Shown: positions 3,972 to 22,334 of the stretch, in pieces | How the letters are laid out: every line of letters begins with the position of its first letter | Numbering within the stretch: position 1 is the first letter of the stretch | Origin: Phototrophicus methaneseepsis | Lineage (GTDB): Bacteria; Chloroflexota; Anaerolineae; Aggregatilineales; Phototrophicaceae | Direction: 5' to 3' | Length of the DNA: 64,000 nt | Assembly (NCBI RefSeq): GCF_015500095.1 | Contig: NZ_CP062983.1 | Coordinates: 2,976,001-3,040,000, forward strand | Made by a program: the position numbers and the translations under genes | The notes under the pieces: generated by a model | Database searches by the model: none | What the model was told of the DNA's origin: nothing | Seen by the model: the letters and a program-made list of their open reading frames with translations, nothing else

Positions 3972-3977
3972 CATCTC

Positions 3978-5534: not shown

Positions 5535-5798
5535 CACATTAATATTTCATGAATATGTAGCTCTGAATACCTAGTTATCCAACGTATAACTTCTACGGAT
5601 TAGCCTTGAAACCCGCTGGAAATTCTTCTAAACCTCATTTGAAATAGACTATTTTAATACGAAGATTTCATATCTTTTATTTCTAAACATTACGAAGTAA
5701 GAGCTACGTTATTACTACGGGTTAACCCTTATACTTATGCGCTAAATTTCACATTATGCTATTTTCAATCATTGTTTTTATAGGTCATTCGGGAATTC
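5535..5798. other. AT-rich intergenic region upstream of the sensor kinase operon
   Basis: No gene is visible. The stretch is AT-rich and contains the perfect 10-bp palindrome GGGTTAACCC (5719-5728), about 70 bp before the kinase start, a possible operator. No convincing -35/-10 pair was found. Confidence 0.4.
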
Positions 5799-8279: not shown

Positions 8280-8281
8280 TC

Positions 8282-8719: not shown

Positions 8720-8796
8720 AGGCTTATAAGACGGTAGTGGCATTATAGTAAAAGGACATATTACAGAAGCAGACTTTGAATTTCCTTGTGAGCTGT

Positions 8797-9900
8797 ATGC
8801 CACCCATTCACATTTTGTATATTGAAGATGATGCCGGAGCTGTCGAGTTGTTTCGGAATTATCTGAAAGAATTCGACTGTAACCTCACCCATGTCTTCGA
8901 TGGTGAAAGTGGTCTGGCTGAGTGTTACATACACACCTATGATGTGATATTAATCGATAATTTGCTCAGTGGTATGAGCGGTATTGATGTTATTGAGGCA
9001 CTCCATAGTGTCATGGAAATGCCACCAGCAATCATCATGGTGACAGGTACCGGCGATGAATATATTGCTGTTGAAGCAATGAAGGCTGGGGCAGATGACT
9101 ATATCGTCAAAGATAGCGGTCGAAAGTATTATGATCTGTTGATGAAGGTCATCAACCAAGTCCTCGAAAAACGTGAACTGCGACGTATTCAACGGGGTTT
9201 ACTGGATGAACAAGCCCAACTCATCAAGGAATTACAAGCATTTAGTTACGCTGTAGGGCATGATCTCAAGCAGCCCCTCTCCGTCTTGCTAAGTTCTTTG
9301 GAACTTGCGGAACTTTATACGCGCAAGGATGCGACAGCAAAGGCCATTGGTAAAATCTCCCAGATGCGTGATACCATCGTGAAGATGAATGGTACCCTGG
9401 AAGCTTTGATTTTGTTTGCTCGTGTGCGGGATGCTGGCGAAGTTACGTTCCAACATTTGAACATGAATCAGATTGTTGAGGATGTGAAAAGGCAACTCTC
9501 AGGCATGATTCAACAATATGATGCGACGATCACAATCCAGAATGACTTGCCATCTGCCTTAGGTTATCCTCCATGGGTGGAGAGTATTTGGATGAACTAT
9601 ATTTCTAATGCGATGAAGTACGGTGGCACCCCGCCACATATTGAGATCGGTGGGACCAAACAGAGCGAACAAAAAGTCTACTATTGGGTCAAAGATAATG
9701 GCAATGGCCTCTCACAAGATCAACAAGAGCGAGTCTTTATACCCTTCTCACGATTGAGAGAGCGTAAAGTAGAAGGGCATGGCCTGGGGCTGGCGATCGT
9801 GAACTTGATTGCTAAGCGATTAGGAGGTGAGGCAACCGTAAGTAGCGTGCCCACTAAAGGCAGCATCTTCGGCTTCACACTCATGTGTGAGCAAGGATGA
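8797..9900 (+). CDS. Receiver-histidine kinase protein (REC-HisKA-HATPase)
   Basis: 367 residues with the receiver at the N-terminus: acidic residues in IHILYIEDD, phosphoacceptor Asp54 in LIDNLLSG, Thr in MVTGTGDE and Lys in YIVKDS. A helical linker leads to the kinase, with His155 in YAVGHDLKQPL, the N box in WMNYISNAMKYGG, DNGNGL and GHGLGLAIV. This domain order means its kinase activity may be controlled by phosphorylation, and it has no membrane segment. It lies 77 bp after the response regulator and is probably the last gene of the signalling operon. The ATG at 8797 is preferred because it begins directly before the receiver; GTG (8788) and TTG (8776) lie in frame upstream, and none has a strong ribosome-binding site. 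Confidence 0.88.
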   Translation: MPPIHILYIEDDAGAVELFRNYLKEFDCNLTHVFDGESGLAECYIHTYDVILIDNLLSGMSGIDVIEALHSVMEMPPAIIMVTGTGDEYIAVEAMKAGADDYIVKDSGRKYYDLLMKVINQVLEKRELRRIQRGLLDEQAQLIKELQAFSYAVGHDLKQPLSVLLSSLELAELYTRKDATAKAIGKISQMRDTIVKMNGTLEALILFARVRDAGEVTFQHLNMNQIVEDVKRQLSGMIQQYDATITIQNDLPSALGYPPWVESIWMNYISNAMKYGGTPPHIEIGGTKQSEQKVYYWVKDNGNGLSQDQQERVFIPFSRLRERKVEGHGLGLAIVNLIAKRLGGEATVSSVPTKGSIFGFTLMCEQG

Positions 9901-9938
9901 GACTGTCGTAAATTTTCAGAACATAAGGTTTAAAAAGT

Positions 9939-9967
9939 AAAAAGACGACCAGAGTCGTCTTTTTTTT
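9939..9967. terminator. Bidirectional terminator between the kinase operon and the MFS gene
   Basis: A 10-bp perfect stem AAAAGACGAC/GTCGTCTTTT with a CAGA loop, with T runs on both strands (eight or more on the plus strand). It separates the convergent kinase operon and MFS gene. Confidence 0.9.
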
Positions 9968-10002
9968 GTACCTATTCTATAGGGTGAATGCGCACAGATT
10001 TA

Positions 10003-11193
10003 TCACGCACGTTTCAATTTTATATAGTTGTTGATCCGCTCAGAATTGATGACCATTACGCCAATATAAAGTAAGAAGACTGCGGGCATCAGGGCGAAGG
10101 TCGTACCGGAGGCAATAACACCGAAGATCGGGGGTAGGAAAGTAGCACCAGTATAAGCAACAGCCATCTGGAAACCCATAATCATAGGGGCATCTTCTCG
10201 GCCAAATCGAGCGGGAGTTTCGTGCAGCATACTGGGGAAAATAGGTGCACAGCCCAGACCAATCAGAATGAAACTGATGAGTGAGAAAATCGTTGGCAAG
10301 GGGAGGATGAGTAAAATCACACCCAATAAAATGCCAATTTCGCCAATACGGATAAGGCTTTCGCTGCTCATGCGTACCGTGACAAAACCACTGATGAAGC
10401 GCCCCAGGGTAATGCTGCCGTAAAAGAAGGATACCCATTGTGCTGCGGTCGCGACGTCCAGGCCTTTGATCTTTACGAGAAAGCTGCTGCCCCATAGCCC
10501 CATGGTGGCTTCGATACCACAATAAAAGAGAAAGATCATCAGCACTGTTTTGACGCCGTTGACCTGCAAAGGATAGAACACGCCTTTGGGAATATCGACG
10601 ATGTGGGGTTCATCTTCTGGTTCTGGGCTATGTTTGGGTGATTGTTTTGCTACTTTCTCCCATACGGGTAATGTGAAGAAAAGGATGGCTACCAATCCGC
10701 ACTGAATGATGGATACGGTTAGGTAGCCATTGCGCCAGGATTGATCTTGAATGTATTGAGAGATGATCACGGGGCCCAACATCGCACCTAACCCCCAGAA
10801 GCAGTGCAGCCAGCTCATATGACGAGCTTCATAGTGGCGTGCGACATAATCATTCAAGCCGGAATCTACAGAACCTGCGCCCAAGCCCAGGGGAATAGCA
10901 AGTAAGATCAGCCAGAAAAAGGCAGGGGCTAGCCCAAAGCCCAGTAATGCCACTGCCGTCATTGTGACGCTGACGACAGTGACCCTACCTGTGCCAAAAC
11001 GGGCTAATATTTTGCCACTGAGCAGGCTTGATACGATGGTGCCGCCGGAGATGACCATTGAAATGATGCCTGCGGCGCTAAAAGGTACGGCGAACTCGGG
11101 CTGCATAACAGGCCATGCCACCCCCAGTAATGCATCCGGTAGCCCCAGGCTGATAAATGCAGCATAAATTACAAGCAGGAATAATGTTGCCAT
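10003..11193 (-). CDS. MFS transporter, fucose-permease-like
   Basis: A 396-residue protein with about twelve membrane segments and a hydrophilic central loop (KQSPKHSPEPEDEPH, residues about 185-200), the normal size and layout of the major facilitator superfamily. GLGAGSVDSGLNDYVARHY and MSWLHCFWGLGAMLGP resemble sugar permeases of the FucP/YfkF-like group, where the first loop carries the conserved Asn/His pattern. The protein at 59044 has the same motifs (MNNFVAEHF, MNWLHASWGVG) and is a clear paralogue. A ROK-family regulator ends 15 bp upstream on the same strand, so the two form an operon and the substrate is probably a sugar or sugar derivative. The exact substrate is unknown. Confidence 0.88.
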   Translation of the reverse strand: MATLFLLVIYAAFISLGLPDALLGVAWPVMQPEFAVPFSAAGIISMVISGGTIVSSLLSGKILARFGTGRVTVVSVTMTAVALLGFGLAPAFFWLILLAIPLGLGAGSVDSGLNDYVARHYEARHMSWLHCFWGLGAMLGPVIISQYIQDQSWRNGYLTVSIIQCGLVAILFFTLPVWEKVAKQSPKHSPEPEDEPHIVDIPKGVFYPLQVNGVKTVLMIFLFYCGIEATMGLWGSSFLVKIKGLDVATAAQWVSFFYGSITLGRFISGFVTVRMSSESLIRIGEIGILLGVILLILPLPTIFSLISFILIGLGCAPIFPSMLHETPARFGREDAPMIMGFQMAVAYTGATFLPPIFGVIASGTTFALMPAVFLLYIGVMVINSERINNYIKLKRA

Positions 11194-11208
11194 TCAGGAC
11201 ACTTTCTT

Positions 11209-12225
11209 TTACGAGGAAATCGAGAGTTGTGGTTCTAATAAAGCCAGGGTGATCTCAATCATGCCAGTCTGGTAATCCAGCGTGAAATCCCTGGTGAGCC
11301 GTATTGTGGGTAAGGAATCTACGTAGAGGTGTTGTGCACATTTTTGCTGAATGAGATCAATGTGGGCGTCGGTTAGAAAAGTGCCATAGAGAATCAGGCT
11401 TTGTGGGTTGAGTAAGCTACTGGTAATGATGATGAGCTGTGCAATTGCCTCGCTGATACGCTCTAGGGATCTATATAGTTCTTGGTCGAACCAATTCACA
11501 CCAAAAGGTAACCCGCCAATTTCACCAGCATGATTACTATAGCCTTTGTGCAGGGCATCACCCAGGTAAATACCTGCACCCGGTGCATATTTCTGTGGGA
11601 AATAGAGATAGACGATCGTATTTTCTGAGTCAATCGTTTTTCGTTTACTGTAACCAACGCAGGCCGCATTAACGTCATTTTCAAAGAGCACAGGTCGTTG
11701 ATAGCGCTCCTGGTAATGAGCCACTAAGTCGGCTCCAATTAGTGCCGGATAATCACCCTGAACGAATTTACCCTCTAGCACGACCCCCGGTAAGCCAAAC
11801 CCAATGGCTCGGATAGAAGGATAGGCTAGCAGGGCTTCTTCGATATATGGCTCAAAAGTATCTACCTTAATATCAGGCAGGGGCGTGTCTTGCTCGTAAA
11901 TGCATTCCCCGAATAAATTGGCTATGCGTAGATAAAGCATGTCAAGGCTGTCTTGTTCATGCGTAAACAGGATCAACGTGTGAGCATGGTTCTCATTAAA
12001 ACAAAAGCATTGTGCAGGACGTCCACCACTTGATGCCGCGAATCCATCTTCGAAGACTTCATGATTGTCAGCAAGCTCTTGCAAAATAGTTGCAACAGTC
12101 ACTGTGCTGAGCCCAGTGGCCTGGGCAATCTGATGTTTGGTCGCTCTCTTGGTGGCTTTTAACGCTCGCCTCACCAGATTGATGTTGATTTCTTTCATGA
12201 TTAAGGCGTTGCCACTGACTGACAT
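11209..12225 (-). CDS. ROK-family transcriptional regulator
   Basis: 338 residues. The N-terminal winged helix-turn-helix (residues about 12-70) contains ATKHQIAQATGLSTVTVATIL and ends with the SGGRPAQ motif typical of NagC/Mlc/XylR-type ROK repressors. The sugar-kinase-like domain has AIGFGLPG and FENDVNAACVGY. The ROK zinc motif is weak: HAGEIGGLPFG retains the His but the following Cys cluster is missing, and the ATP-binding DxGxT site is degraded, so it is a regulator and not a kinase. It probably senses a sugar and represses itself and the downstream MFS gene through the palindrome at 12270-12287. The ATG at 12225 has AGGGT upstream; one nine codons later has no ribosome-binding site. 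Confidence 0.88.
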   Translation of the reverse strand: MSVSGNALIMKEININLVRRALKATKRATKHQIAQATGLSTVTVATILQELADNHEVFEDGFAASSGGRPAQCFCFNENHAHTLILFTHEQDSLDMLYLRIANLFGECIYEQDTPLPDIKVDTFEPYIEEALLAYPSIRAIGFGLPGVVLEGKFVQGDYPALIGADLVAHYQERYQRPVLFENDVNAACVGYSKRKTIDSENTIVYLYFPQKYAPGAGIYLGDALHKGYSNHAGEIGGLPFGVNWFDQELYRSLERISEAIAQLIIITSSLLNPQSLILYGTFLTDAHIDLIQQKCAQHLYVDSLPTIRLTRDFTLDYQTGMIEITLALLEPQLSISS

Positions 12226-12269
12226 CGTTTTTGCTACCCTGGCTCGTACTTATAAAATGACTTTTTAAA

Positions 12270-12287
12270 ACTACTTTCATAAGTAGT
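12270..12287. promoter_or_regulatory. Palindromic operator upstream of the ROK-MFS operon
   Basis: A perfect 7-bp inverted repeat ACTACTT-TCAT-AAGTAGT, 45 bp upstream of the ROK start codon in AT-rich DNA. It probably serves as the autoregulatory site of the ROK protein. Confidence 0.55.
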
Positions 12288-12342
12288 GTGCATTATGTTT
12301 CTTAAAGGGTGTTTTGTCAAGCCAGGGTTAGGCGAATACAAA

Positions 12343-12362
12343 AGGGCCAGCATGCTGGCCCT
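12343..12362 (-). terminator. Terminator of the aldo/keto reductase gene
   Basis: A 20-bp perfect palindrome (AGGGCCAGCA with its complement), followed on the minus strand by TTTTGTATT. It lies 30 bp after the stop of the aldo/keto reductase. Confidence 0.75.
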
Positions 12363-12391
12363 AAACTGATTGGTTTGGTGATGATAACGGG

Positions 12392-13270
12392 TTAGTTACT
12401 GGCCCACTCGGCTTTGCCAAGCTCGTCGAGCGTCTGGAAGTCTTCATCGCTGAGTTCAAGGCTGGCGGCTGCGGTGTTTTCTTCCAGATGGGCGAGGCTG
12501 CCTGTACCTGGGATTGGCAGCATGACTGGACTTCGCTTCAAAATCCATGCCAGGGCAATCTGTGAAGGTGTTGCCCCGAGGCGTGCTGCGATATCGCTCA
12601 ATTGGCTGCCTTCTTCGGCAAGCTTCCCGGCTGATAGGGGGAACCAGGGAATAAAAGCGATGTTCTGATGCTCACAGTAATCCAGAACATCCTCGCTTTT
12701 ACGATGGACGAGATTATAGAGGTTTTGTACGCTGACGACGGGGAAATATTGCTGGGCTGCTTCAATCTCTTCAATGCTGACTTCGCTCAGGCCTACATGA
12801 CGAATGAGACCTTCGCTTTGCATATCTGCAATGACCTGGAATTGTTCGTTCCGGTCAACTTTTGGATCAATACGATGGAGCTGCCATAGATCAATACGCT
12901 CCACACTCAATCGGCGTAAACTCATAAGGACACATTGGCGTAAATATTCCGGACGCCCTAGGGGCGGCCAGATATCCGGGCCATGACGTGTCAGGCCACC
13001 TTTGGTCGCAATCACCATATCGCGATAAGGGTAGAGCACCTCGTGAATGAGATCTTCGCTCACGAAAGGTCCATAAGAATCTGCTGTATCAATAAAATTG
13101 ATGTTCAGTTCGGGGAGTCGCTTGAGGACGCGTCGCGCTTCGTCTTTATCATCTGGCTCTCCCCATATGCCTTTACCTGTGATGCGCATAGCCCCAAATC
13201 CAAGGCGATGAATGGGTATGTCGCCACCTAATAGAAATGTTCCACTTGCTTCAGCCGTTACAACAGCCAC
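12392..13270 (-). CDS. Aldo/keto reductase
   Basis: A 292-residue TIM-barrel oxidoreductase using NADPH. The catalytic tetrad is visible: Asp in FIDTADSYG with the Tyr four residues on, Lys in VIATKGGL, and His in LWQLHRID. The cofactor end has [11 protein letters not shown] and [15 protein letters not shown], the phosphate-binding Gly/Ser region. The length is normal for the short AKR group (PLR or YghZ/YdhF-like oxidoreductases). The start is GTG at 13270, with AAAGGA about 8 bp upstream. It is a single-gene unit with its own terminator. The substrate is probably a small carbonyl compound. Confidence 0.9.
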
Positions 13271-13356
13271 CGGCTTTTCCTTTCATTTTAAGGGTGTAAC
13301 AAAGCATGGATAAATATCTTTGTGATTCCAGAATCAGTTTAATTATGATGGGAGAT

Positions 13357-13366
13357 GTTTGCAAAC
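13357..13366. promoter_or_regulatory. Palindrome upstream of the aldo/keto reductase
   Basis: A perfect GTTTGCAAAC palindrome, 87 bp upstream of the reductase start. The half-site spacing and core are like those of LacI-family operators, but no such regulator is in the window. The rest of 13271-13416 shows no gene. Confidence 0.3.
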
Positions 13367-13416
13367 GATATGGGCATAGATGAGTGTTCGCCACTCTGGC
13401 CGATTTATAGACATAA

Positions 13417-13563
13417 TTCCCCCTCGCCCTGGTGCTGGCGATGATGGGCGTTCGTTATGAAGAATTCAACGCCACGCAGGCGTATGCGGTGTTGCGAGAG
13501 GCAGCCGACGCGGCCCAGGCAGAAGCGGCTGCTGAAGTCGCGGCGCTGGCAACAACGTCATGA
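13417..13563 (+). pseudogene. Remnant of the 3' end of a lost gene
   Basis: A 48-codon open stretch ends at TGA 13561 and reads PLALVLAMMGVRYEEFN, then an Ala/Glu-rich helix (REAADAAQAEAAAEVAAL). It is coding-like: Ala/Glu codons are strongly biased to GCG/GCC, and the GC content is clearly above the surrounding DNA, but there is no start codon with a ribosome-binding site and a stop interrupts the frame just upstream. ATGs at 13441 and 13444 could start a 40-residue peptide, without support. Most likely this is the tail of a deleted or transferred gene. The family is not recognised. Confidence 0.35.
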
Positions 13564-13575
13564 GAATCTATTCAT

Positions 13576-14337
13576 TCAGGACTGGTAGTAGATTGCAATG
13601 CGTTGACCATTGATTGTTTCTACATGGATTTGGATATCATAGATGTCATGTAAGACATCCGAACGAATGATGTCTTTTGGTGCTCCCTGGTAAGCAACCT
13701 TTGCTTGCTTCATAGCGATAATATGATCCGAATAACATGATGCGAAATTAATGTCATGGAGTACAAGAATGATCGTCTTGCCAAACTCGCTGGCTGTATG
13801 ATGTAAAAGCTGCATGATGCCAACAGCGTGCTTCATGTCGAGGTTATTCAAGGGCTCATCCAGCAGAATATAGTCCGTATCCTGGCACAGCACCATTGCG
13901 ACAAAAGCACGCTGTCGTTGTCCGCCGGAGAGCTCATCCAGGAAGCGATCTGCCATATTCTCGAGTTGGAGATAGTTCAGCGCTTTTTGTACATGCTTGA
14001 GGTCATCGGTTGTGGGGCGACCTTTAGAATAAGGATAACGTCCAAAAGTAACCAGATCGCGAACAGTCAGACGAGACCCAAGATGATTATCTTGTCGCAA
14101 AATTGATAAGCGGCGTGCTAGTGCATCACTGGGCGTTGAAACGACATCTAGTCCATCGATCAACACCTGACCCGCATCCATGGGTAATAGGCGACTTATC
14201 ATCGAAAGTAAAGTCGATTTTCCTGCACCGTTTGGCCCGATAATCGAAGTGATCCCACCAGCTGGAATCTCCAGTGTGACGTTGTTAACAACGATTGCCT
14301 TATCATAGGCCTTAGTAACGCCTTTGACTTCAATCAT
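13576..14337 (-). CDS. yclP: Siderophore ABC transporter ATP-binding protein
   Basis: A 253-residue ABC ATPase. The Walker A motif is GPNGAGKST (residues 34-42), the Q loop is near RQDN, the signature is LSGGQRQRAF (about 137-146), Walker B is YILLDEPLNNLD, and the switch His is in VLHDIN. Length and sequence (TVRDLVTFGRYPYSKGR) fit the FecE/FhuC group, and within it YclP/CeuD-type subunits of catecholate or petrobactin uptake. Its start overlaps the end of the upstream permease by 4 bp (ATGA), so the genes are translationally coupled. It is the last gene of the iron operon. Confidence 0.92.
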   Translation of the reverse strand: MIEVKGVTKAYDKAIVVNNVTLEIPAGGITSIIGPNGAGKSTLLSMISRLLPMDAGQVLIDGLDVVSTPSDALARRLSILRQDNHLGSRLTVRDLVTFGRYPYSKGRPTTDDLKHVQKALNYLQLENMADRFLDELSGGQRQRAFVAMVLCQDTDYILLDEPLNNLDMKHAVGIMQLLHHTASEFGKTIILVLHDINFASCYSDHIIAMKQAKVAYQGAPKDIIRSDVLHDIYDIQIHVETINGQRIAIYYQS

Positions 14338-15335
14338 CGGCTGGACTCCCGGATGAGTAGGAAAATGAACATAATGCCTCCAAGGAACTCTACGATAATA
14401 CTCAGGCTGGTGTTGAAGGAGAATACGCGCTCAACAATTATTTGACCGCCGATGAGCGATAACATGGCTAATAAGATCGCGCAGGGCAAAATCCACACAT
14501 GCTTGTGTGACCCAACAATCTGGTAAGCAAGGTTAGCGACTAACAGCCCAAAGAAGGTGACTGGACCAACAAGTGCTGTTGAGATGGCTACCAGCGCTGT
14601 AACCCCGATTAAGATAATTGAGACAGTCTGGTAGTAGTTCACACCCAAGTTAATCGCCATATCGCGGCCCAAGGCCAGAACATCGAATGTGTGCCGGATA
14701 CGCCATAGCATGACTGAGACACCGACAATCAGCACAACGGAAACGGCTAAAAGCTCGCGATCAAATGAGTTGAAGCTGGCGAAGAGCATGTCTTGCAGGA
14801 TTGCAAACTCGTTTGGATCGATGATGCGCTGCATAAACCCAGATATACTGCGAAACAGCACCCCAAAGATAATACCCACCAGCATGACTAGATGTAGGCT
14901 GCGACGAGTCCCACCGAATAGCCAGCGGTAGAGAATTCCAGCAAAGACGACCATTAAGATAATTTCCATACCGAAACGAATGCGTGGGTCGATCGTCACA
15001 ACGCGCTGTGATCCTACTGTGAAGATTAAAGTTGTCTGGATGAGGATATACAGCGCATCAAAGCCCATAATTGATGGCGTCAGAATGCGGTTGTTGGAGA
15101 TTGTCTGGAACAAGACTGTGGAAACGGCAATTGCATAGGCGACGAGGGTAAGTGCAATGACTTTCGTTCCACGGAAGCGTAAAACAAAATCCCAGCTTCC
15201 TTTAGCATCCAAAGTCATAAAGAGGATGACCACCCCGATCATGAGTAAGCTTAAAAATAGGAGAACCTTTGCAGGGTGCGAGAGGTGCCAATGCTTGGAA
15301 TGCGTATCCGTATCGAGAGCGATTTTAGGCAACAC
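14334..15335 (-). CDS. yclO: Siderophore ABC transporter permease (YclO-like)
   Basis: 333 residues, FecCD family, about nine or ten membrane segments. The segment RGTKVIALTLVAYAIAVSTV, followed by FQTISNNRILTPSIMGFD, is the signature of the YclO/CeuC half of petrobactin-type permeases. The coupling region to the ATPase is near FDVLALGRDMAINLGVNY. It overlaps the partner permease gene by 11 bp and the ATPase gene by 4 bp. It imports ferric siderophore across the cytoplasmic membrane as a heterodimer with the next subunit. Confidence 0.92.
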   Translation of the reverse strand: MLPKIALDTDTHSKHWHLSHPAKVLLFLSLLMIGVVILFMTLDAKGSWDFVLRFRGTKVIALTLVAYAIAVSTVLFQTISNNRILTPSIMGFDALYILIQTTLIFTVGSQRVVTIDPRIRFGMEIILMVVFAGILYRWLFGGTRRSLHLVMLVGIIFGVLFRSISGFMQRIIDPNEFAILQDMLFASFNSFDRELLAVSVVLIVGVSVMLWRIRHTFDVLALGRDMAINLGVNYYQTVSIILIGVTALVAISTALVGPVTFFGLLVANLAYQIVGSHKHVWILPCAILLAMLSLIGGQIIVERVFSFNTSLSIIVEFLGGIMFIFLLIRESSR

Positions 15336-16287
15336 GGGCGTTCCTCCTCAGCAGTAAGTAGAGGAAGATAAAACTGCCAATGACACCTATGACAACACTT
15401 ATCGGAATTTCATAGGGGAAGTTGATGATACGGCCAATCATATCGCAGATAAGTACAAACCCTGTACCAAGTACAGCGATCCAGGGCACAGCCAACCGAA
15501 CATTATCACCAAAGGTCAGTCGCACGACATTTGGCACTACTAGGCCCAGAAATGGAATCATTCCTACTGTGACGACGTTCACAGCTGTGACCATTGAGAC
15601 GATAATGAGCCCAAGCGTCATGACACGGTTGTAATTCATCCCAAGGTTCGTCGTGAAATCTTGCCCCATGCCCGCCACAGTAAACTGATCGGCAGCAATA
15701 TAAGCAATCAGTGTCAATATAAGAGAAATCCAGAGAAGCTCGTATCGACCACGTAACACACCCGCGAAGCTACCCATCATCCAAGCATTGAGTGATTGAA
15801 GTAGCTCCAATCGATAGGCGAAGAAGGTCGTAATGGCGCTTATGACGCCACCAAGCATCATCCCAACAAGAGGTACGATCAGGACTGAACGTAAAGGGAT
15901 TTGCTGTAAGATGCGCAAAAATAGTGCTGTTCCAGCCAGTGCAAAAATTGTCGCAACAAGCATTTTGCCAAAGAGGGGCATACCTGGCGCGAAGGCTGTC
16001 ACAAATAGAATTCCCATGCTGGCTGACTCAACAGTGCCAGCTGTAGACGGCTCGACGAAATTATTGCGTGCCAGAATCTGCATAATCAGACCGGCAATCG
16101 CCATGGATGCGCCTGACAGAATGATTGCGAGCGTACGTGGAATCCGACTGATGAGGAGGACCTGCAGCGCTCGCCCATCTTCTGAATTAGATAACAAAGT
16201 CTGTGGTGTCACATCGCTGACGCCGATAAAAAGGCTCAGCACTGCAAAGATGGCAATAACGAATATCGCTAACGTTAATCGTTTCAT
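15325..16287 (-). CDS. yclN: Siderophore ABC transporter permease (YclN-like)
   Basis: 320 residues, FecCD family, the partner of the YclO-like subunit. The characteristic ISRIPRTLAIILSGASMAIAG, then MQILARNNFVEPSTAGTVES (residues about 65-85), is that of YclN/CeuB. The ATPase-coupling helix is around AGMGQDFTTNLGMNYNRV, and PFLGLVVPNVVR is the family's conserved late motif. It is the first permease gene after the binding protein, separated from it by a 126-bp gap that contains a hairpin. Confidence 0.92.
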   Translation of the reverse strand: MKRLTLAIFVIAIFAVLSLFIGVSDVTPQTLLSNSEDGRALQVLLISRIPRTLAIILSGASMAIAGLIMQILARNNFVEPSTAGTVESASMGILFVTAFAPGMPLFGKMLVATIFALAGTALFLRILQQIPLRSVLIVPLVGMMLGGVISAITTFFAYRLELLQSLNAWMMGSFAGVLRGRYELLWISLILTLIAYIAADQFTVAGMGQDFTTNLGMNYNRVMTLGLIIVSMVTAVNVVTVGMIPFLGLVVPNVVRLTFGDNVRLAVPWIAVLGTGFVLICDMIGRIINFPYEIPISVVIGVIGSFIFLYLLLRRNARVA

Positions 16288-16368
16288 ACAGATATCACAT
16301 GATCAATTTGAGTGTTACCAAACAACAGAAGTCTCTCCTGCTAAACAAGTGCCTCATCAATAAATGAC

Positions 16369-16403
16369 TTAAGGCCAGATAATGTATTCTTACCTGGCCT
16401 TAA
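16369..16403 (-). terminator. Intra-operon hairpin after the siderophore-binding protein gene
   Basis: A 10-bp perfect stem TTAAGGCCAG/CTGGCCTTAA with a 15-nt loop, 11 bp after the stop of the binding protein and before the permease. The T tract is weak on the minus strand, so it is more likely an mRNA stabiliser or partial terminator that lets the binding protein be made in excess. Confidence 0.55.
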
Positions 16404-16413
16404 ATTGATGTTT

Positions 16414-17481
16414 TTATTCGCTGCTTTCCTCGGTTGCTTCTTCTGTTGGTGTTTCTTCGGCAGCTTCCTCAGCAGTCTCCTCAGTCACTTCCTCAACAGC
16501 TTCTTCATCGCTATCAAGTTCAATGCCTAAATCAACTGCGATATCGTCGATAGTTTCCTGAATAGCGCCGAGACCACCCATAACCAAGTACAGGTTTGTT
16601 GGGTCGAGATAGATGACCTGGTCGTTTTGCCATGCCGTAGTTTGTGCAACCAATTCATTGTCCAGTATTTGCTCAGCAGCTTCCGATTCCTGACCAATAG
16701 CAACGTCCCGGTCGATGACGATAAGCCAATCAGGGTTGGCTTCCAGGATGAATTCGAAGGAAATGGCTTCGCCATGGGTGGCTTCTTCGATATCTTCAAT
16801 AACAGGTACGAAACCCAGTTCTTCGTGCAGCCATCCAAAGCGAGAATCAGGGCCATATGCTGTGACCTCGCCACCACTGGTCATCACAATAAGCGATGTA
16901 CCTGCTTCTGCAGTGACTTCATTGACAGCCTCGACGCTGGCTGCGATATCTTCCCAGACGGCTTGAACTTCTTCTTCTTTATCGAAGATCTGGCCCAGAA
17001 TTTCCGCATTGTGAAGTTGGCTGTTGAGATAATCTGTGTTGTCAGCAGTTAGATCAATCGTAGGCGCAATTTCTGACAATTGTGGATAGACAGCAGCTGA
17101 ACGCGCTGCCACGATGATTAGGTCTGGCTCCATAGCGTTGACTAACTCGTAATCCGGCTCAAACAATGATCCGACTTTTGCGATATCCTCGCTCGCATAC
17201 AGGGACAGACTCTCAGGGTAATTGGCATCTGGTACACCAGCGACTTCAATCCCAAGGGCATTGAGTGTGCTTAGGCTGGCTAAGTCAAATGTGATCACCG
17301 TCTCGGGGTTAATAGGGACGACGGTTTCTCCCTGATTGTGAGTGATGGTAACTTCTTCGACATCCTGCGCAAAAAGAATGCCGGTTGCACCAAATACGAG
17401 TGCCAGGACCAATAGCGTTGTGTAGGCGCTACGTGCAAAAAAGCGTGAACTTTGACGATTCATAACTCGATTAGTAAACAT
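16414..17481 (-). CDS. yclQ: Siderophore-binding protein of the ABC transporter (YclQ-like)
   Basis: 355 residues. It has an N-terminal signal segment (residues about 15-40, ending GILFAQD) and a two-lobed periplasmic-binding fold with TITHNQGETVVPINPETVITFD, LEPDLIIVAARSA-like and LIVMTSGGEVTAYGPDSRFG segments that match the YclQ/CeuA/FatB group of catecholate or petrobactin binders. There is no Cys at the cleavage site, so it is not an obvious lipoprotein; it may be anchored by an uncleaved helix or be released. The last 40 residues are an extremely acidic Glu/Thr-rich tail, unusual for the family. The start at 17481 has AGGAG 6 bp upstream. Expression is probably iron-controlled, from the 300-bp region upstream. 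Confidence 0.88.
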   Translation of the reverse strand: MFTNRVMNRQSSRFFARSAYTTLLVLALVFGATGILFAQDVEEVTITHNQGETVVPINPETVITFDLASLSTLNALGIEVAGVPDANYPESLSLYASEDIAKVGSLFEPDYELVNAMEPDLIIVAARSAAVYPQLSEIAPTIDLTADNTDYLNSQLHNAEILGQIFDKEEEVQAVWEDIAASVEAVNEVTAEAGTSLIVMTSGGEVTAYGPDSRFGWLHEELGFVPVIEDIEEATHGEAISFEFILEANPDWLIVIDRDVAIGQESEAAEQILDNELVAQTTAWQNDQVIYLDPTNLYLVMGGLGAIQETIDDIAVDLGIELDSDEEAVEEVTEETAEEAAEETPTEEATEESSE

Positions 17482-17491
17482 AGATGCTCCT

Positions 17492-17547
17492 AGAGACATG
17501 AATGAAGAGACTAAAAGTGTTGATTTTCACGATTCTAGAATGTCTCT
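17492..17547 (-). promoter_or_regulatory. Possible SD-sequestering stem in the yclQ leader
   Basis: AGAGACAT (17492-17499) and its exact inverse ATGTCTCT (17540-17547) flank a 40-nt loop directly upstream of the AGGAG that serves the yclQ start. In RNA the stem would touch the ribosome-binding site. The same area holds the short palindrome TCTCTTAGAGA. The rest of 17548-17726 has no gene and no clear Fur box. Confidence 0.35.
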
Positions 17548-17726
17548 TAGAGATATGTCCACGCGTGCAGTTAAGGGAGGATTTTCACCTCATTTGTTAA
17601 ATTATTCACGGCCTTCAAGGAAAAAATTACAAAAACGCAGAGGCAGAAACTCACGACAACTGTAAGGTTATTTCGATTGCAAAAAGTGTTACAGTTTGCT
17701 TGCGAGGAGATGGATTTCAAGTGGTT

Positions 17727-17768
17727 AAAAATACCCACTATCGATGAGGGCTGACAGAGGGTATTTTT
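17727..17768 (-). terminator. Terminator of the ParA/ParB-like operon
   Basis: A 10-bp perfect stem AAAAATACCC/GGGTATTTTT with a 22-nt loop, T-rich on both strands. It lies 34 bp past the stop of the ParB-like gene. Confidence 0.7.
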
Positions 17769-17802
17769 TAGAAGTTCTCAGGCATGTGAGAAGCGTGGAT
17801 AA

Positions 17803-18621
17803 CTACTTTTTATGAAGCCGCTCCAATTGCTCAGCGGCATAGCGATAAGTCTCAATCAGCTTGAGAATCTCATCTTCTGAATATTCTGTCTGGGCCAGCC
17901 GATAGTCATCATAGATGGTGGTATTGAGCTTATTGAAGCGCTTCTGGAATTGTGTGGGCTGCATATCTTCGAGCTCCGGCTTTGTGAGTGCTTTCACCTC
18001 TGCTCGCAGGGCTTTGACAGATAACCCTTCTAGCAATGCCTTACGCATGAGGTCATCTTGTTGATCGGATTCTAAACCCTTGATCGCGTCATAATGCCCT
18101 ACTGCCAAAGGCTTAATATCGTTCTTCTGAGCGATCATTTCTTGATAGACCTCACGACGTCGTGAGAATTCTACCTGTTTGCAGATTGATTTTAGGTTAT
18201 GAATAGAGGCTGGTTCGTAACCAAAATACTGTGCGATTTCTTCGGTTTTTCCCCAGGCGATACGGTCGTAAGCGACCAGTGCGTCGCCAATCCACAGATT
18301 GATCTGATCCCTAATCTTGAAGAAAACTTCAAAGGCATTCTCAAAGTCGCTGATGTCGGCATTTTCTGGCACTTCTAGCCCATAGCCAGTCATGGTGAAA
18401 TTGCCTAATGAGAGCGTGCCATCCTCGCGCTGGACGATAGCGTTCTCAGGGACCTGTTGCAGCGCCGTACGGACCCGGCGCGGGACCGGCACGGAGCCGT
18501 AAATCTGGTCTGGTGTTGGGATGACGACTTTCCGCTTGGGCGTGGTAGGCGTCGCCGGATCCGGCGTGTTATTGGCTGTGTTCTGAATGCCTTCTTCAAG
18601 GCGCTTCTTCAAGTTACTCAT
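17803..18621 (-). CDS. ParB-like DNA-binding partner of the ParA ATPase
   Basis: 272 residues. Residues 1-45 are disordered and rich in Thr/Pro/Lys. Residues about 75-180 hold INLWIGDALVAYDRIAWG, then EEIAQYFGYEPASIHNLKSI and FSRRREVYQEM. This GD-W/A-L-Y-G...GY-x-T-L-x-N-x...SRRRE pattern is shared with helix-turn-helix proteins of actinobacterial and Chloroflexota plasmids and phages that resemble the ParB core, but there is no canonical ParB CTPase motif (GERR). Residues 180-272 are helical. Its ATG overlaps the parA stop by 4 bp, the classical par operon arrangement. It is probably the centromere-binding adaptor and may recognise the inverted repeat at 19910. The name rests partly on context. 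Confidence 0.6.
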   Translation of the reverse strand: MSNLKKRLEEGIQNTANNTPDPATPTTPKRKVVIPTPDQIYGSVPVPRRVRTALQQVPENAIVQREDGTLSLGNFTMTGYGLEVPENADISDFENAFEVFFKIRDQINLWIGDALVAYDRIAWGKTEEIAQYFGYEPASIHNLKSICKQVEFSRRREVYQEMIAQKNDIKPLAVGHYDAIKGLESDQQDDLMRKALLEGLSVKALRAEVKALTKPELEDMQPTQFQKRFNKLNTTIYDDYRLAQTEYSEDEILKLIETYRYAAEQLERLHKK

Positions 18622-19469
18622 GAGACCACCTCCTGGGCGGGATTGATCTGAGTCGGATTGAGCAGGCTGGTGACCAGGCGTGCAACGGGTTCGAACTCAC
18701 CACGGGCAGCCGTGGCACCAGGTACCTCGGCGGTCCATATGGATTGTGTCAGTGTGCGGGCGCTGCGCCAGGCTGCTCGGCGCATCACTGGCGGCAGCAC
18801 ATTGTAATGAGCGCCATAGAACTGCTGCAGATGCCGGTACATCAGCCGGTCAGCCAGGAAGCGCATTGAAATCTTCTGCGGGACGATGCCCAGAATCTGA
18901 GCGACGGCTGGTGCACCCGGTTGTTGGCTGGCCTGGGCACTGGCTTTGCTGATATAGGCGATGGAGCGGGCCAGAGAGCCGATGCTGTCGTCTTCATTCA
19001 TTGTGGGCAGCAGAATGTAATCTGCCGTGTAGTAGAACGCGGTGTGAATAGCGGTAATGGAGGGCGAGGTATCGACGACGATGACATCATAGATGCCATT
19101 CAATTCCTGAAAGCGCTCATAGATGGCCTGCGTCACCAGATTGTAGTCGGCGTGCTCAACTTCGCTCTGAAGCTCGGCAGCGCTGAGGATATCGAAGCGT
19201 AGGCCAGGCCCGGCGAAGCTCTCCGGCACCAGCGAGAGGACATCGCTCCATTCGACATCTTCCAGGACGAGGGACGCGAAACCATCATAAGGCTCGATGC
19301 CGACGGTGCTGCTGGCATTGCCCTGACCATCCGCATCGACGAGCAGCGTATTGAAGCCTTGAAGGGCCAGCTTACTCGCCAGTGTTGTCGCGCCGGTGGT
19401 TTTACCGATGCCACCTTTGCGACCCATCCAGGCGAAGATCTTGGTTGTGTCGATCTTGGTTTGAGACAT
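18618..19469 (-). CDS. ParA-family partition ATPase
   Basis: 283 residues. It has the deviant Walker A motif KGGIGKTT (signature Lys18, Lys23) in WMGRKGGIGKTTGATTLA, the A' motif VDADGQGNAS (residues 44-53) and Walker B IVVDTSPS near residue 130. The length fits plasmid or phage type Ib/III ParA proteins without an N-terminal HTH, and chromosomal orphan ParA proteins. It forms an operon with the downstream ParB-like gene (4-bp overlap). By eye its codon use is more GC-rich than the flanking tad and ycl genes. The role is ATP-driven positioning of DNA carrying the partner's binding site. The chromosomal parAB pair is normally near the origin, and no gidA/rnpA/dnaA context is present here. Confidence 0.88.
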   Translation of the reverse strand: MSQTKIDTTKIFAWMGRKGGIGKTTGATTLASKLALQGFNTLLVDADGQGNASSTVGIEPYDGFASLVLEDVEWSDVLSLVPESFAGPGLRFDILSAAELQSEVEHADYNLVTQAIYERFQELNGIYDVIVVDTSPSITAIHTAFYYTADYILLPTMNEDDSIGSLARSIAYISKASAQASQQPGAPAVAQILGIVPQKISMRFLADRLMYRHLQQFYGAHYNVLPPVMRRAAWRSARTLTQSIWTAEVPGATAARGEFEPVARLVTSLLNPTQINPAQEVVS

Positions 19470-19531
19470 GAGATTCCTTCCTTATAGACGCCTTGCAAAC
19501 GGATAAAGTGAATAAAGGTATTCAGTGCAGG

Positions 19532-19786
19532 CTATTCAGCCTGAGCTTGAGCAGCTTCAACAGCTGCCGCAATGGTGTCATAGGCACCCACCAACGCATT
19601 CGTGCAGGTTTCGATGCCAATACGCCTGACACGCTCGTAAGCGAATTGGCTCGTTGTGAGCGCATAGACCTTGATGTATTCGTGAGCGAAACTGTCTTTG
19701 TCTCCGGAGAGGGTGACGGTTGTATAGCGATCCCAGGTGGTGACGAGATCGCCATAAGCGGTGGCATCATAAGTCACCAGCCGCAT
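19532..19786 (-). CDS. Small protein upstream of parA, start or frame uncertain
   Basis: 84 residues from the ATG at 19786: TYDATAYGDLVTTWDRYTTV, an SFAHEYIKVYALTTSQFAYERV stretch and an Ala/Gln-rich helical end. The composition looks coding, and it lies 62 bp upstream of parA on the same strand. The start is doubtful: the ATG has a GAAGG directly abutting it. A better-placed ATG at about 19840, with AAAGAAG upstream, opens a 12-codon frame (MTPQDAWTAAHQ) that stops at TAG, and a -1 shift just before that stop would join it smoothly to this frame (SVEREGMRLV). It is either a frameshifted gene or a separate leader peptide. Function is unknown; it may belong to the partition module. Confidence 0.5.
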   Translation of the reverse strand: MRLVTYDATAYGDLVTTWDRYTTVTLSGDKDSFAHEYIKVYALTTSQFAYERVRRIGIETCTNALVGAYDTIAAAVEAAQAQAE

Positions 19787-19909
19787 GCCTTCACGCTCTA
19801 CTGATGGGCTGCGGTCCAGGCGTCTTGCGGTGTCATTGTGCTTGCTTCTTTCTAGAGATAGATATATTCATTGCTTTTGCTTCTTTCTTCTTCATCCCTC
19901 GCTGTGTGT

Positions 19910-19939
19910 TTGACATCGGGAGTAATGTCCCGGTGTCAA
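19910..19939. repeat. 12-bp inverted repeat between parA operon and recombinase
   Basis: TTGACATCGGGA (19910-19921), a 6-nt centre GTAATG, then TCCCGGTGTCAA (19928-19939): 11 of 12 positions are symmetric. It sits in the 250-bp divergent region between the ParA operon and the tyrosine recombinase. Size and place fit a centromere-like or operator site for the ParB-like protein, or a recombinase core. The rest of 19805-20040 is AT-rich and holds no gene. Confidence 0.6.
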
Positions 19940-20040
19940 TTCGATATATTTCTTTGTAATGTGCCTCAATTCGTGCATAATGCCTTTCACCTTCACATCC
20001 TCAGCCCTACTTACCAACAATTACGATGAAGAGGATTCTC

Positions 20041-20991
20041 ATGTCGACATCTCCGTTAAAGACGGTGAGCTTGTCGGATGCGGCAGAAGTTTTTTTAATG
20101 GCTTCGTCATACAGTCCGGCAACCTTGAACAACTACGAAATATTTCTCCACAAGACCTTGCCCTCGTACTTAGGTGCTCCTCGTATGGTCGATGCCATTT
20201 CATATGAAGACCTGGTGCGCTTTCTGGGGTATTGCAAGCAAGGACGTGGCGTGCAAGCCAGAACATTGAAGGCTTATACAGGCTATCTGCGATCCTTTTT
20301 TGGCTGGTGTGAAGCCGTGGGGTATATAGATCGAAGTCCAGCGCGCGCATTGACATCCCCTAAATACATCGAACCGCCAAAGACGGTGTTGGGCGTTCCA
20401 GTGGCTCACTTACGGCAAATGCTGGATTTCACGGAGCAAGCCAGTCCTCGGAACTATGCCATCTTGTTGTTCATGATGGTGACGGGATGCCGAGTGAGCG
20501 CGACCAGCAATTTGCTGTGTGGGAACTTGGACTTGCAGCAGGGGAGTGCACTGGTGTTCGAGAAAGGCCAACGCTGGGTGACGTACGAATTCGACGAATT
20601 GACAGCCGGTGCGTTATCGAACTGGCTGGTGCAGCGACCAAACGCGAAGCATGATTACGTATGGACAGGTCCCGGACCCAAATACGTCCAGTTCCGAGCG
20701 ACAGGAATCCGTAAGATGCTGTCGGATCTATGCGTACGGTTGAGGCTGCCCCACTATACGCCGCATCAGTTGAGACACAGCGTAGGGGAGATCATTGCCA
20801 ATCATGATCATAGTGAGTTGGCGGTGGCGACTGCCCTAAACCACAAGAATCTACAGAGTGCCCGTATATATATGCCACAACGTATTCAGCGCACACGTGT
20901 CATGAGGCGAGAGATTGAGTCGACCCTGTATCCAGAGCGGGCTGCAAAGGGCAAAACGGAGCTCCAGGAGACTGTGGCCGTGAAGACGTAA
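20041..20991 (+). CDS. Tyrosine recombinase/integrase
   Basis: 316 residues. An N-terminal SAM-like core-binding domain (residues about 10-100) contains FLMASSYSPATLNNYEIFLH and LKAYTGYLRSFFGWCEAVGYI. The catalytic domain carries Arg151 (TGCRVSA), His242-x-x-Arg245 (HQLRHSVGE), His268 (LNHKNLQSARIYM) and the nucleophile Tyr277, a complete RHRHY set. The length is typical of XerC/D-like and small-element integrases. The ATG at 20041 has GAGGA 6 bp upstream. It is divergent from the ParA operon, and no tRNA gene or clear flanking direct repeat was found. It could be the integrase of an inherited element, or a resolvase acting on the nearby inverted repeat. Confidence 0.9.
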   Translation: MSTSPLKTVSLSDAAEVFLMASSYSPATLNNYEIFLHKTLPSYLGAPRMVDAISYEDLVRFLGYCKQGRGVQARTLKAYTGYLRSFFGWCEAVGYIDRSPARALTSPKYIEPPKTVLGVPVAHLRQMLDFTEQASPRNYAILLFMMVTGCRVSATSNLLCGNLDLQQGSALVFEKGQRWVTYEFDELTAGALSNWLVQRPNAKHDYVWTGPGPKYVQFRATGIRKMLSDLCVRLRLPHYTPHQLRHSVGEIIANHDHSELAVATALNHKNLQSARIYMPQRIQRTRVMRREIESTLYPERAAKGKTELQETVAVKT

Positions 20992-21009
20992 TCTCTTACG
21001 TCACAATCA

Positions 21010-21036
21010 TTGACAACTCTTGACAATACGTGAACA
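21010..21036 (+). repeat. Three 10-bp-phased TTGACA-like repeats upstream of the tad genes
   Basis: TTGACA occurs at 21010 and 21020, and GTGAACA follows at 21030, each exactly one helical turn apart. A TATAGT box lies at 21057-21062, but the -35 spacing does not fit. The repeats may bind an activator of the tad genes; alternatively they mark the edge of the recombinase module. Confidence 0.4.
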
Positions 21037-21101
21037 GTGCTTGATGTGCTCTATGGTATAGTAAGTTTGCACCGTATCGGTTCAGGAGTGGCAGAAGGCC
21101 T

Positions 21102-22334
21102 ATGAAGCTGACCATTTTGCAAACAATATTAAAAACACTTGATGGAACGCCTTCTCATGTCCAGTCGCGTCACCAACTGGGTCAAAGTTTGGTAGAAATG
21201 GCATTTGTTACGCCGTTGCTCCTGATGATGGTGGTTGGCGTTGTTGAAATTGGTTATTATGCTAATAATTATCTGAATTTAATGGAAGTTACACGGATTG
21301 GTGCTCGTACTGGTACGGTCCTCGTTGGTGATCAGAGCCCACTTGAATGGGATGATGGAGCGAGCTTACACAAAAATGTACTTTATCATATGGGCGTGCA
21401 AGAATATGCTGGCCGCTCGAATGACGATACTAGCCCCCTGCCAGACCCCCCGCCGACACGCGACAATCGTTACAATTTAAGTGAACAGGCTCGCGATTGT
21501 GGGGACTACGATGGCTTCTATGAATATATTGCTTGTTCAATGCTTGATTCGCTTGATCCAATTGAATTGAAAATAGGGGAACGCCCCGTTACGAATCAGG
21601 ATGGGGCGACGGAGAACAAAGATTGGATTGACGACATCGTCATTTCTGTATTTGCTTTACAGGCAATTAATAATGATGATCCACTCAACTGGATTGCGGA
21701 TCCTCTCGTCTACTCCCGGACACATAATTTTGAAACAGGCGACACCGTAGGGAAGTATCCCAAAGGCCCATCTGTTATTGTTGTCGGACGTTACCCGACT
21801 AATGCAAATGAATGTAACATGGGGGTTGTAGATGGTGCAGAGAGCCCGCTAAATGGTCGTATGCCTTTTGATTTTTACAATTATGGCGTTCAAAATCGGA
21901 CAAGATCGATTGATGGTGTTGTGCGGGATATTGAACTGTTTCAAGAAGATACAGGGCCTGAGTATCAGCGTGGGTTTGTCTGGACAGGTCAGTATAAAGT
22001 CGAAGAAAAAGTAGAAAATGATATGGGCGCTGAGTTGGATAGCGTCTGTTGGGGATCTAACTTTTCGATAGAAGAAGTCGAACAGAGGATGAATGCTTAT
22101 AATTTTATCCCCGTGGACGATACATCTGATCTTGATGAAGAACGTCGACTTTATCTCCCTAGCGAGGGTCTCGTTCTTGTTGAAATGATGTGGAACCATC
22201 AGTTACTTCTTGATATGCCATTCTATGACACGTTAGTAAAGATGTTTGGTGATACCCAGGATATACGTATTATGGTCTGGGCAGCATTCCCAGTACCAAC
22301 CGTAGAACCAAATATCGTGTTTGATCTTCGGTAA
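21102..22334 (+). CDS. TadE-like pilus assembly/surface protein
   Basis: 410 residues. The N-terminal region has the TadE signature GQSLVEMAFVTPLLLMMVVG (residues about 27-46), a type IV-pilin-like hydrophobic helix preceded by a Gly-Gln and with Glu at +5, here followed by VVEIGYYANNYLNLMEVTRIGARTG. The remaining 330 residues are an acidic extracellular domain with several Cys (CGDYDGFYEYIAC, NECNMG). TadE and TadF are minor pseudopilins of the tight-adherence apparatus. Average TadE is about 150-200 residues, so this is an expanded version. It begins a three-gene plus-strand run (TadE-TadG-TadE). The secretion ATPase and platform genes (tadABC) are not in this window. Confidence 0.8.
   Translation: MKLTILQTILKTLDGTPSHVQSRHQLGQSLVEMAFVTPLLLMMVVGVVEIGYYANNYLNLMEVTRIGARTGTVLVGDQSPLEWDDGASLHKNVLYHMGVQEYAGRSNDDTSPLPDPPPTRDNRYNLSEQARDCGDYDGFYEYIACSMLDSLDPIELKIGERPVTNQDGATENKDWIDDIVISVFALQAINNDDPLNWIADPLVYSRTHNFETGDTVGKYPKGPSVIVVGRYPTNANECNMGVVDGAESPLNGRMPFDFYNYGVQNRTRSIDGVVRDIELFQEDTGPEYQRGFVWTGQYKVEEKVENDMGAELDSVCWGSNFSIEEVEQRMNAYNFIPVDDTSDLDEERRLYLPSEGLVLVEMMWNHQLLLDMPFYDTLVKMFGDTQDIRIMVWAAFPVPTVEPNIVFDLR

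What the first reader, a model, noticed from the sequence alone, without database searches (positions are those of the whole stretch)
17803..20991. ParA + ParB-like + small protein divergent from a tyrosine recombinase, with an inverted repeat between them
The sequence shows a ParA ATPase gene overlapping by 4 bp a non-canonical ParB-like gene, and, across a 12-bp inverted repeat, a complete RHRHY recombinase. ParB proteins normally carry a CTPase domain (GERR motif); this partner lacks it and instead has the GD-x-L...SRRRE pattern of plasmid and phage proteins. Nothing else of a phage or plasmid is present. It could be the core of a small integrative element, or a domesticated partition-recombination device that moves chromosomal DNA.
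Basis: partly seen in the sequence, partly recalled or inferred. Interest (0 to 1): 0.65.

Follow-up and report, generated by a model that had tools for sequence, protein, structure and literature searches.

The report
Prophage remnant with partition genes
These genes are the leftover end of a decayed bacterial virus in a deep-sea bacterium; fuller relatives in the same chromosome carry both an integrase and a DNA-partition gene pair whose ParB-like half is of an unusual kind.

Summary
The genes are real, but they are not a self-contained device. They are the right end of a decayed prophage. By its exact genome size the organism is Phototrophicus methaneseepsis ZRK33.

Two large prophages in the same chromosome carry the same module: A (38.8 kb) and B (about 50.7 kb, from a 17/18-bp repeat). 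The order is integrase, intergenic region, DnaA_N/wHTH initiator, 194-aa gene (B only), exonuclease, ParA, ParB-like. The window copy has lost the exonuclease, all but 12 codons of the initiator and about half of the 194-aa gene; the 'small protein' is that scar. A 129-bp piece of a phage gene, 93% identical to B, lies at 13423-13551.

The ParB-like protein lacks the ParB N-terminal domain, resembles the LmbU regulator family below its cut-off, and follows a ParA in 8 of 10 homologues; the two weak hits show none. The repeat is identical in B and is not the crossover site. That ParB reads it is inference.

Phages with integrase plus ParA/ParB are already in print (PMC4490671). New here are this Chloroflexota lineage and its LmbU-type partner.

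The parts
13423..13551 (+). Remnant: C-terminal coding piece of a phage gene (in B a 480-aa protein with an SH3-like hit below cut-off; a lysis role is a guess)
   Evidence: 93.0% identical over 129 bp to prophage B (1210780-1210908), 83.8% over 111 bp to prophage A; first seen; SH3_3 E 8.4e-4
13576..17499 (-). Iron/siderophore-type ABC transporter genes (ATPase 13576-14337, permeases 14334-15335 and 15325-16287, binding protein 16414-17499; named by reading the translations) lying between the phage-gene remnant and parB, the place where prophage A carries DUF4365/DUF3800 genes; candidate prophage cargo
   Evidence: Position only; cargo status is inference
17803..18621 (-). ParB-like gene, LmbU-type HTH protein without the ParB N-terminal domain (272 aa); residues 1-51 resemble prophage A, 52-215 prophage B, 216-272 neither in particular
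18618..19469 (-). parA, Walker ATPase (283 aa), 83-84% identical to ParA of prophage A
19532..19797 (-).
   Evidence: 67% nt identity of window 19540-19797 to B 1213978-1214234
19798..19836 (-). 5' stub of the replication-initiator gene: 12 codons, start included, then a stop at the deletion junction
   Evidence: B has a 465-aa gene here with DnaA_N at 1.1e-6
19802..20002 (.). 201-bp block 97.5% identical to prophage B, covering initiator start, intergenic repeat and integrase upstream region
19910..19939 (.). 12-6-12 imperfect inverted repeat, identical in prophage B; candidate ParB-like binding site/operator
20026..20991 (+). Tyrosine recombinase (integrase), 61% and 52% identical to those of prophages A and B
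20992..21012 (.). Right prophage/host junction (attR zone); homology to the same-genus genome G001 resumes at 21013, upstream of the TadE-like gene

Best explanation
The locus is the right (integrase) end of a decayed temperate-phage genome. In fuller relatives the integrase inserts the phage into intergenic DNA upstream of host genes. A divergently transcribed gene set encodes a DnaA_N/wHTH replication initiator, an exonuclease, ParA and a LmbU-type ParB. Most likely ParA and the ParB-like protein partition or position the phage DNA when it is a low-copy circle, before integration or after excision. The ParB-like protein most likely also binds the inverted repeat between the integrase and initiator genes, as centromere, operator or both. 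Shown: gene content, homology to the prophages, the deletions, an empty site in the sister species for A, the attachment repeats of A, and ParA-ParB pairing. Inferred: the partition function, binding to the repeat and regulation. In the window copy the initiator is truncated and no left attachment repeat was found, so I infer that it cannot replicate and probably cannot excise by itself; integrase, parA and parB remain open reading frames.
For: Same module at the right end of prophages A and B in this chromosome. Phage genes beside it: terminase, portal, tape measure and ERF in A, major head protein and Erf-like protein in B. Perfect 29-bp direct repeats bound A at 4824020 and 4862838; ccmB- and ccmC-like genes, which A separates, are adjacent in the same-genus genome G001. 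B is bounded by a 17-of-18-bp repeat next to host DNA that lies upstream of the PBP-like gene in G001. Window 19802-20002 (97.5%) and 13423-13551 (93.0%) match B; 18470-19442 (75.8%) matches A. G001 homology resumes 21 bp after the integrase. A 39-kb contig of another genus (G074) has integrase, initiator, ParA, ParB-like, terminase and tape measure. A ParA lies directly upstream in 8 of 8 clear ParB-like homologues. Chimera: ParB residues 1-51 match A 31/39 and B 15/40; 52-215 match A 45/161 and B 100/164. parA is A-like and the repeat is B-like.
Against: No functional data. Prophages A and B are integrated, so they do not need partition while integrated. One copy of the repeat per element, and A lacks it at that place, so a parS role is weakly supported. 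The 201-bp B-like block (97.5%) is far more similar than the ParB middle part (66% DNA), so the two were not acquired together and the ParB-repeat match could be coincidence; ParB residues 216-272 match A and B equally (22/55, 20/55). Two weak ParB-like hits (G310, G329) have no ParA Walker motif in six frames of the 3.6 and 18 kb held, so the family is not always ParA-linked. Integrase is next to the pair in 4 of 8 loci; two of the other four lie on contigs under 6 kb. The segment 1480-13400 is not phage-like by reading, and no direct repeat marks its ends, so the left border is unresolved.
Confidence: 0.86

Rival explanations
1. The trio is retained by selection after the phage died: integrase, ParA and ParB-like plus the repeat act as an immunity or incompatibility device against prophages such as B, for example by binding or titrating their repeat/centromere.
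For: All three genes are intact open frames while their neighbours are deleted. The repeat is identical to that of B. parA differs from A's with dN 0.105 and dS 1.24, i.e. was under purifying selection over its history. In G033 a ParA/ParB-like pair stands among apparent host genes with no integrase match in the 13.7 kb held.
Against: The 201-bp block (97.5%) implies fairly recent exchange, so decay may simply be unfinished. The dN/dS covers mostly phage history. The integrase was found in only 3 of 151 genomes at E<=1e-30, and not in G001.
Confidence: 0.07
2. A genomic island of about 19.5 kb (window about 1480-21012), mobilised by this integrase, with regulators, transporters and a siderophore ABC system as cargo.
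For: Relative to G001 the whole stretch between the 250-aa gene (679-1431) and the TadE-like gene is extra, and the integrase abuts the right end. G001 had no match to the binding protein at E<=1e-30, a search without a positive control.
Against: No direct repeat at the two ends; the only matches of 10 bp lie inside, at 2401 and 2524. Homologues of parts of the stretch lie elsewhere in G001 and in other relatives, as for ordinary chromosomal genes. A phage-gene remnant at 13423 lies inside it.
Confidence: 0.05
3. The inverted repeat is the integrase's own recombination core and the integrase shuffles DNA there.
For: Geometry resembles a Xer-type core (12-bp arms, 6-bp spacer; resemblance recalled); it lies upstream of the integrase.
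Against: The crossover repeats of prophage A, and the probable ones of B, lie downstream of the integrase, and G001 homology in the window also resumes downstream. Prophage A, with the more similar integrase (61%), has no such repeat upstream.
Confidence: 0.02

Closest known systems
Glacial phage scaffold CY1_63_1964 and relatives (PMC4490671, passages read)
   Same: [quoted passage not shown] its authors propose that it can integrate or live as a plasmid, which is the reading favoured here
   Different: 80-kb phage-plasmid scaffold with CRISPR/Cas from an ice-sheet virome; its ParB type was not compared here
Cluster A mycobacteriophages with parABS (RedRock, Miko and others; PMC7157519, abstract and passages read)
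   Same: Temperate phages with ParA plus diverse ParB proteins; some also carry a RepA initiator; low-copy extrachromosomal maintenance shown there
   Different: There parABS replaces the integration cassette; here integrase and ParA/ParB-like occur together. RedRock ParB reads two parS loci of eight direct 8-bp copies each; here a single inverted repeat is the candidate
LmbU family regulators (NCBIfam NF038070; LmbU of Streptomyces lincolnensis, PMC10763038, passages read)
   Same: 8 of 8 ParB-like members match the model at E<=0.1 (best 8.1e-27; window protein 2e-5); LmbU binds a palindrome
   Different: The two scores shown (24.6 and 60.9 bits) are below the curated 125 bits; here the gene follows parA, in phages where the context is known
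ParB/Noc HTH domain
   Same: Pfam HTH_ParB hits in 3 of 8 members at E<=0.1 (best 7.1e-4); the only three PDB profile hits at E<=5 are Noc chains (E 0.23-0.32), in what I take to be their HTH region (recalled)
   Different: No N-terminal ParB domain hit for the window protein, no GERR in 8 of 8; profile comparison with the canonical ParBs of prophage C and G009 gave nothing
Prophage C of the same chromosome (L007/L064/L065) and the G009 locus (L045)
   Same: Integrase near ParA and a ParB; C has terminase and portal genes
   Different: Partner is a canonical ParB with GERR

Membership tests
Temperate tailed phage (prophage) | Tyrosine integrase | tested here: met
Temperate tailed phage (prophage) | Head, packaging and tail genes in the element | tested here: not met
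   In the window only a 129-bp piece of one phage gene was found by comparison with A and B; met in A, B and G074, so the window is a remnant, not a prophage
Temperate tailed phage (prophage) | attL/attR repeats and empty site | tested here: inconclusive
   Right junction found; no left repeat above chance length. Met for A (29/29 bp, empty site in G001), probable for B (17/18 bp)
Type I ParABS partition system | ParA Walker ATPase | tested here: met
   AAA_31 3.6e-21, PHROG ParA 6.2e-28, KGGIGKT
Type I ParABS partition system | Adjacent cognate DNA-binding gene | tested here: met
   8 of 8 clear ParB-like genes follow a ParA; overlap 4 bp in window, A and B, 11-83 bp by earliest start in the other five; two weak hits without ParA
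Type I ParABS partition system | ParB with CTPase N-terminal domain (GERR; motif recalled) | tested here: not met
Type I ParABS partition system | parS/centromere bound by ParB | tested here: inconclusive
   One repeat in the window and B, none in A at that place; binding not testable here
LmbU family (NF038070) | Curated score of 125 bits | tested here: not met
   24.6 bits for the window protein, 60.9 for the G074 protein
Phage-plasmid | Extrachromosomal replication as a prophage | not testable with these tools
   A and B encode a DnaA_N/wHTH-like initiator but are integrated; no read data held
Phage-plasmid | Own replication initiator in this copy | tested here: not met
   Only 12 codons remain

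The most novel reading that the evidence does not exclude
The ParA/LmbU-type pair is a combined partition and lysogeny-control module of phages that can both integrate and persist as plasmids. The ParB-like protein reads the repeat between the integrase and initiator genes and decides between integration and replication. The remnant in the window, sharing this repeat with prophage B, would act as an incompatibility or immunity locus against it.
Probability: 0.12. Interest if true: 0.65.

Novelty: new variant of a known kind. Interest (0 to 1): 0.3.

Why it matters
The locus itself is decay. It leads to a temperate-phage lineage of Chloroflexota with no tblastn match to the window ParA (E<=1e-5) or ParB-like protein (E<=0.1) in 50,697 phage records, and none in five peptide-pattern scans of IMG/VR. 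Phages with both integrase and ParA/ParB have been reported (PMC4490671), so that combination is not new. What would matter is the link of the LmbU regulator family to ParA, as a possible centromere-binding partner without the ParB CTPase domain. A search for LmbU with ParB gave 2 papers; in the one opened, ParB occurs only in the reference list. If the genome-size match is right, the host is cultured (PMC8941918, title and passages), so this can be tested.

Tried and rejected
Relatives by peptide patterns: five viral-contig scans gave none. The first genome-contig scan gave none; the second returned one locus, the G074 contig itself with its public name. tblastn of ParA against phages and of ParB-like against phages and plasmids gave nothing.

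Structure: two AlphaFold runs (window protein alone; window plus the L066 protein) gave mean pLDDT 42.3 and 44.4, too poor for a fold search, so none was run. PDB sequence searches with the ParB-like protein and profile gave no significant hit. Profile comparison with canonical ParBs gave nothing.

ParA tree of 10: the two ParAs with canonical partners group (93/91), but the neighbouring fork is open and only two such rows were used, so whether partner type follows ParA lineage cannot be told.

Repeat as integrase core: considered because of its dif-like geometry, rejected because the crossover repeats lie downstream of the integrase. Left attachment site of the window copy: (16300-17830) gave nothing at its threshold. 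One search (12001-17830) gave one 9-bp match at 16919, where about 1.4 are expected. One search (1001-4000) gave two 10-bp matches away from the border. Rfam (13000-21500) and tRNA (whole window) scans: nothing. The repeat's control is a mononucleotide shuffle, weaker than a dinucleotide one.

I first meant to call the integrase/ParAB combination unusual; reading PMC4490671 showed that it is in print, and I lowered the interest score from 0.36 to 0.30. Paper searches listed only part of their hits: 10 of 55, 15 of 33, 8 of 48; the term 'para' also matches ordinary words.

Rows dropped: two weak ParB-like hits (G310, G329) are not among the 8 loci counted as clear. Whether G074 was among the 396 genomes is not shown in its output.
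Full report
WHAT WAS CHECKED. The window is bases 2976001-3040000 of a single 5,631,885-bp contig. A paper gives exactly this size for Phototrophicus methaneseepsis ZRK33, CP051151 (PMC8941918, passages read), so I take that as the organism. ParA, the ParB-like gene, their 4-bp overlap, the 12-6-12 repeat at 19910 and the integrase with its six catalytic residues are all present. The repeat is more than chance.

THE PARALOGUES EXPLAIN IT. The genome has four ParA matches at E<=1e-5 and five integrase matches at E<=1e-10, own copies included. Two ParA places, at 4.858 Mb (84% identical) and 1.212 Mb (40%), show the fuller module: ParB-like, ParA, a 408-aa protein with an exonuclease domain (97% identical DNA between the two), then a 413/465-aa protein, and divergently an integrase. 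The 413/465-aa protein has DnaA_N (E 1.1e-6 in B; 0.043, below cut-off, in A) and a winged-helix hit below cut-off. Between initiator and exonuclease, B has a 194-aa gene that A lacks. Left of these modules lie phage genes. A has terminase small and large subunits, portal and ERF by Pfam, and terminase (4.2e-35) and tape measure (4.2e-85) by PHROGs. B has a major head protein (3.1e-19) and an Erf-like protein (1.8e-29). Several other genes scanned in these regions had no family hit.

ENDS AND EMPTY SITES. Prophage A is bounded by perfect 29-bp repeats at 4824020-4824048 and 4862838-4862866. It separates a ccmB-like from a ccmC-like gene (named by reading), which are neighbours in the same-genus genome G001. 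Prophage B is bounded by an 18-bp repeat with one mismatch, 1166513-1166530 and 1217156-1217173. A 41-bp piece at its left border matches G001 DNA just upstream of the PBP-like gene, the gene that flanks B on the right. For the window, homology with G001 resumes at 21013, 21 bp past the integrase, upstream of the TadE-like gene. No left repeat above chance length was found.

THE WINDOW COPY IS DELETED. Window 19802-20002 is 97.5% identical to B across the initiator start, the repeat and the integrase upstream region. Window 19540-19797 matches the C-terminal part of B's 194-aa gene at 67%. In B these two are about 1.7 kb apart; in the window they are 4 bp apart. Only 12 codons of the initiator remain, and no match to the exonuclease gene was found. 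A 129-bp phage-gene piece lies at 13423-13551 (93.0% to B, 83.8% over 111 bp to A). So the 'small protein' is a deletion scar and the trio is a remnant. A further integrase fragment lies at 5268551.

WHAT LIES TO THE LEFT. Relative to G001, about 1480-21012 is extra DNA (borders by reading). Most of it is not phage-like: regulators, kinases and transporters, named by reading the translations. The iron-type ABC transporter at 13576-17499 sits between the phage-gene piece and parB, where A carries DUF4365 and DUF3800 genes. It may be cargo; this is inference. Homologues of parts of 1480-17800 lie elsewhere in G001 and in G002, G005, G009 and G092 (6 of 21 genomes with matches, own included).

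HOW FAR THE MODULE REACHES. The integrase at E<=1e-30 was found in 3 of 151 genomes including its own, and not in G001. The ParB-like profile found 3 of 400 genomes of the phylum, own included, the other two weak. With the G074 member added it found 4 of 396 of the class, own included. G074 came from the integrase search: a 39-kb contig (JACDGI010000007.1) with integrase, an initiator carrying a DnaA_N-like end (by reading), ParA, ParB-like, terminase and tape measure. Eight clear ParB-like genes are known here (window, A, B, G074, two in G030, G033, G006), and 8 of 8 follow a ParA. The overlap is 4 bp in the window, A and B; in the other five it is 11-83 bp by the earliest start codon, which may inflate it. 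The two weak hits (G310, G329) show no ParA Walker motif in the DNA held. An integrase is beside the pair in 4 of the 8. A third prophage of the chromosome (C) and the G009 locus combine integrase and ParA with a canonical ParB having GERR.

WHAT THE PARB-LIKE PROTEIN IS. All 8 members match the NCBIfam LmbU family model at E<=0.1 (best 8.1e-27). The two scores shown, 24.6 and 60.9 bits, are below the curated 125 bits. Three of 8 match Pfam HTH_ParB at E<=0.1 (best 7.1e-4). A profile of the 8 finds only three Noc chains in the PDB at E<=5, not significantly (E 0.23-0.32). So it is probably an HTH protein with distant likeness to ParB's HTH, without the ParB N-terminal domain. AlphaFold models were poor, and comparison with two canonical ParBs gave nothing.

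MECHANISM. ParB residues 1-51 of the window resemble A (31/39, against 15/40 for B); residues 52-215 resemble B (100/164, against 45/161 for A); residues 216-272 show no preference (22/55 and 20/55). parA resembles A; the repeat is B's, and A has none at that place. This fits an N-terminal part that meets ParA and an HTH part that reads the repeat. The caveat is that the repeat block is far more similar (97.5%) than the HTH part (66% DNA), so the two were not acquired together. I infer that in intact phages the pair partitions a circular form, and that the ParB-like protein also acts at the repeat between the two divergent genes.

LITERATURE. A glacial phage scaffold with both integrase and ParA/ParB is in print, and its authors propose that it can integrate or exist as a plasmid (PMC4490671, passages). 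In cluster A mycobacteriophages parABS replaces the integration cassette (PMC7157519, abstract and passages). A search for LmbU with ParB gave 2 papers; in the one I opened, ParB occurs once, in the reference list. A search for ZRK33 with prophage gave 0 papers. Searches on Chloroflexota/Chloroflexi, prophage and ParA (10 of 55 listed; 6 of 6) showed nothing that describes these prophages, judged from titles and abstract starts, and from passages for PMC8597652.

VERDICT. The locus is a prophage remnant, ordinary in kind. It reveals a phage lineage in which integrase and ParA go with a LmbU-type ParB, a variant worth testing.

Noticed in passing
L018 7507-8730 (- strand); genome 5268551-5268817: C-terminal fragment of the same integrase family in a longer open frame antisense to an Rhs-repeat-like protein (by reading): another phage scar.
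   Followed up: partly
L005 9052-10278 and L006 8718-9944: The exonuclease gene is 97% identical between prophages A and B while the neighbouring parA and integrase genes are far more diverged: recent exchange between co-resident prophages.
   Followed up: partly
L021 9283-12705 (prophage A); genome 1172413-1181192 (prophage B, L024/L023): Very large genes near the left ends of the prophages: in A a TIR + NB-ARC + TPR protein, in B two proteins of 1457 and 1389 aa (not scanned); possible defence cargo.
   Followed up: no
L062 8807-10379 (G033): A ParA/ParB-like pair among apparent host metabolic genes with no integrase match within the 13.7 kb held: a possible stand-alone or domesticated pair.
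   Followed up: no
G000 2340014-2340025: The only other exact copy of the 12-bp half-site in the genome, outside both elements.
   Followed up: no
L046 3373-4410: In G074 the DnaA_N-like part is at the C-terminus of the initiator (by reading the sequence), in A and B at the N-terminus: domain order is swapped.
   Followed up: no
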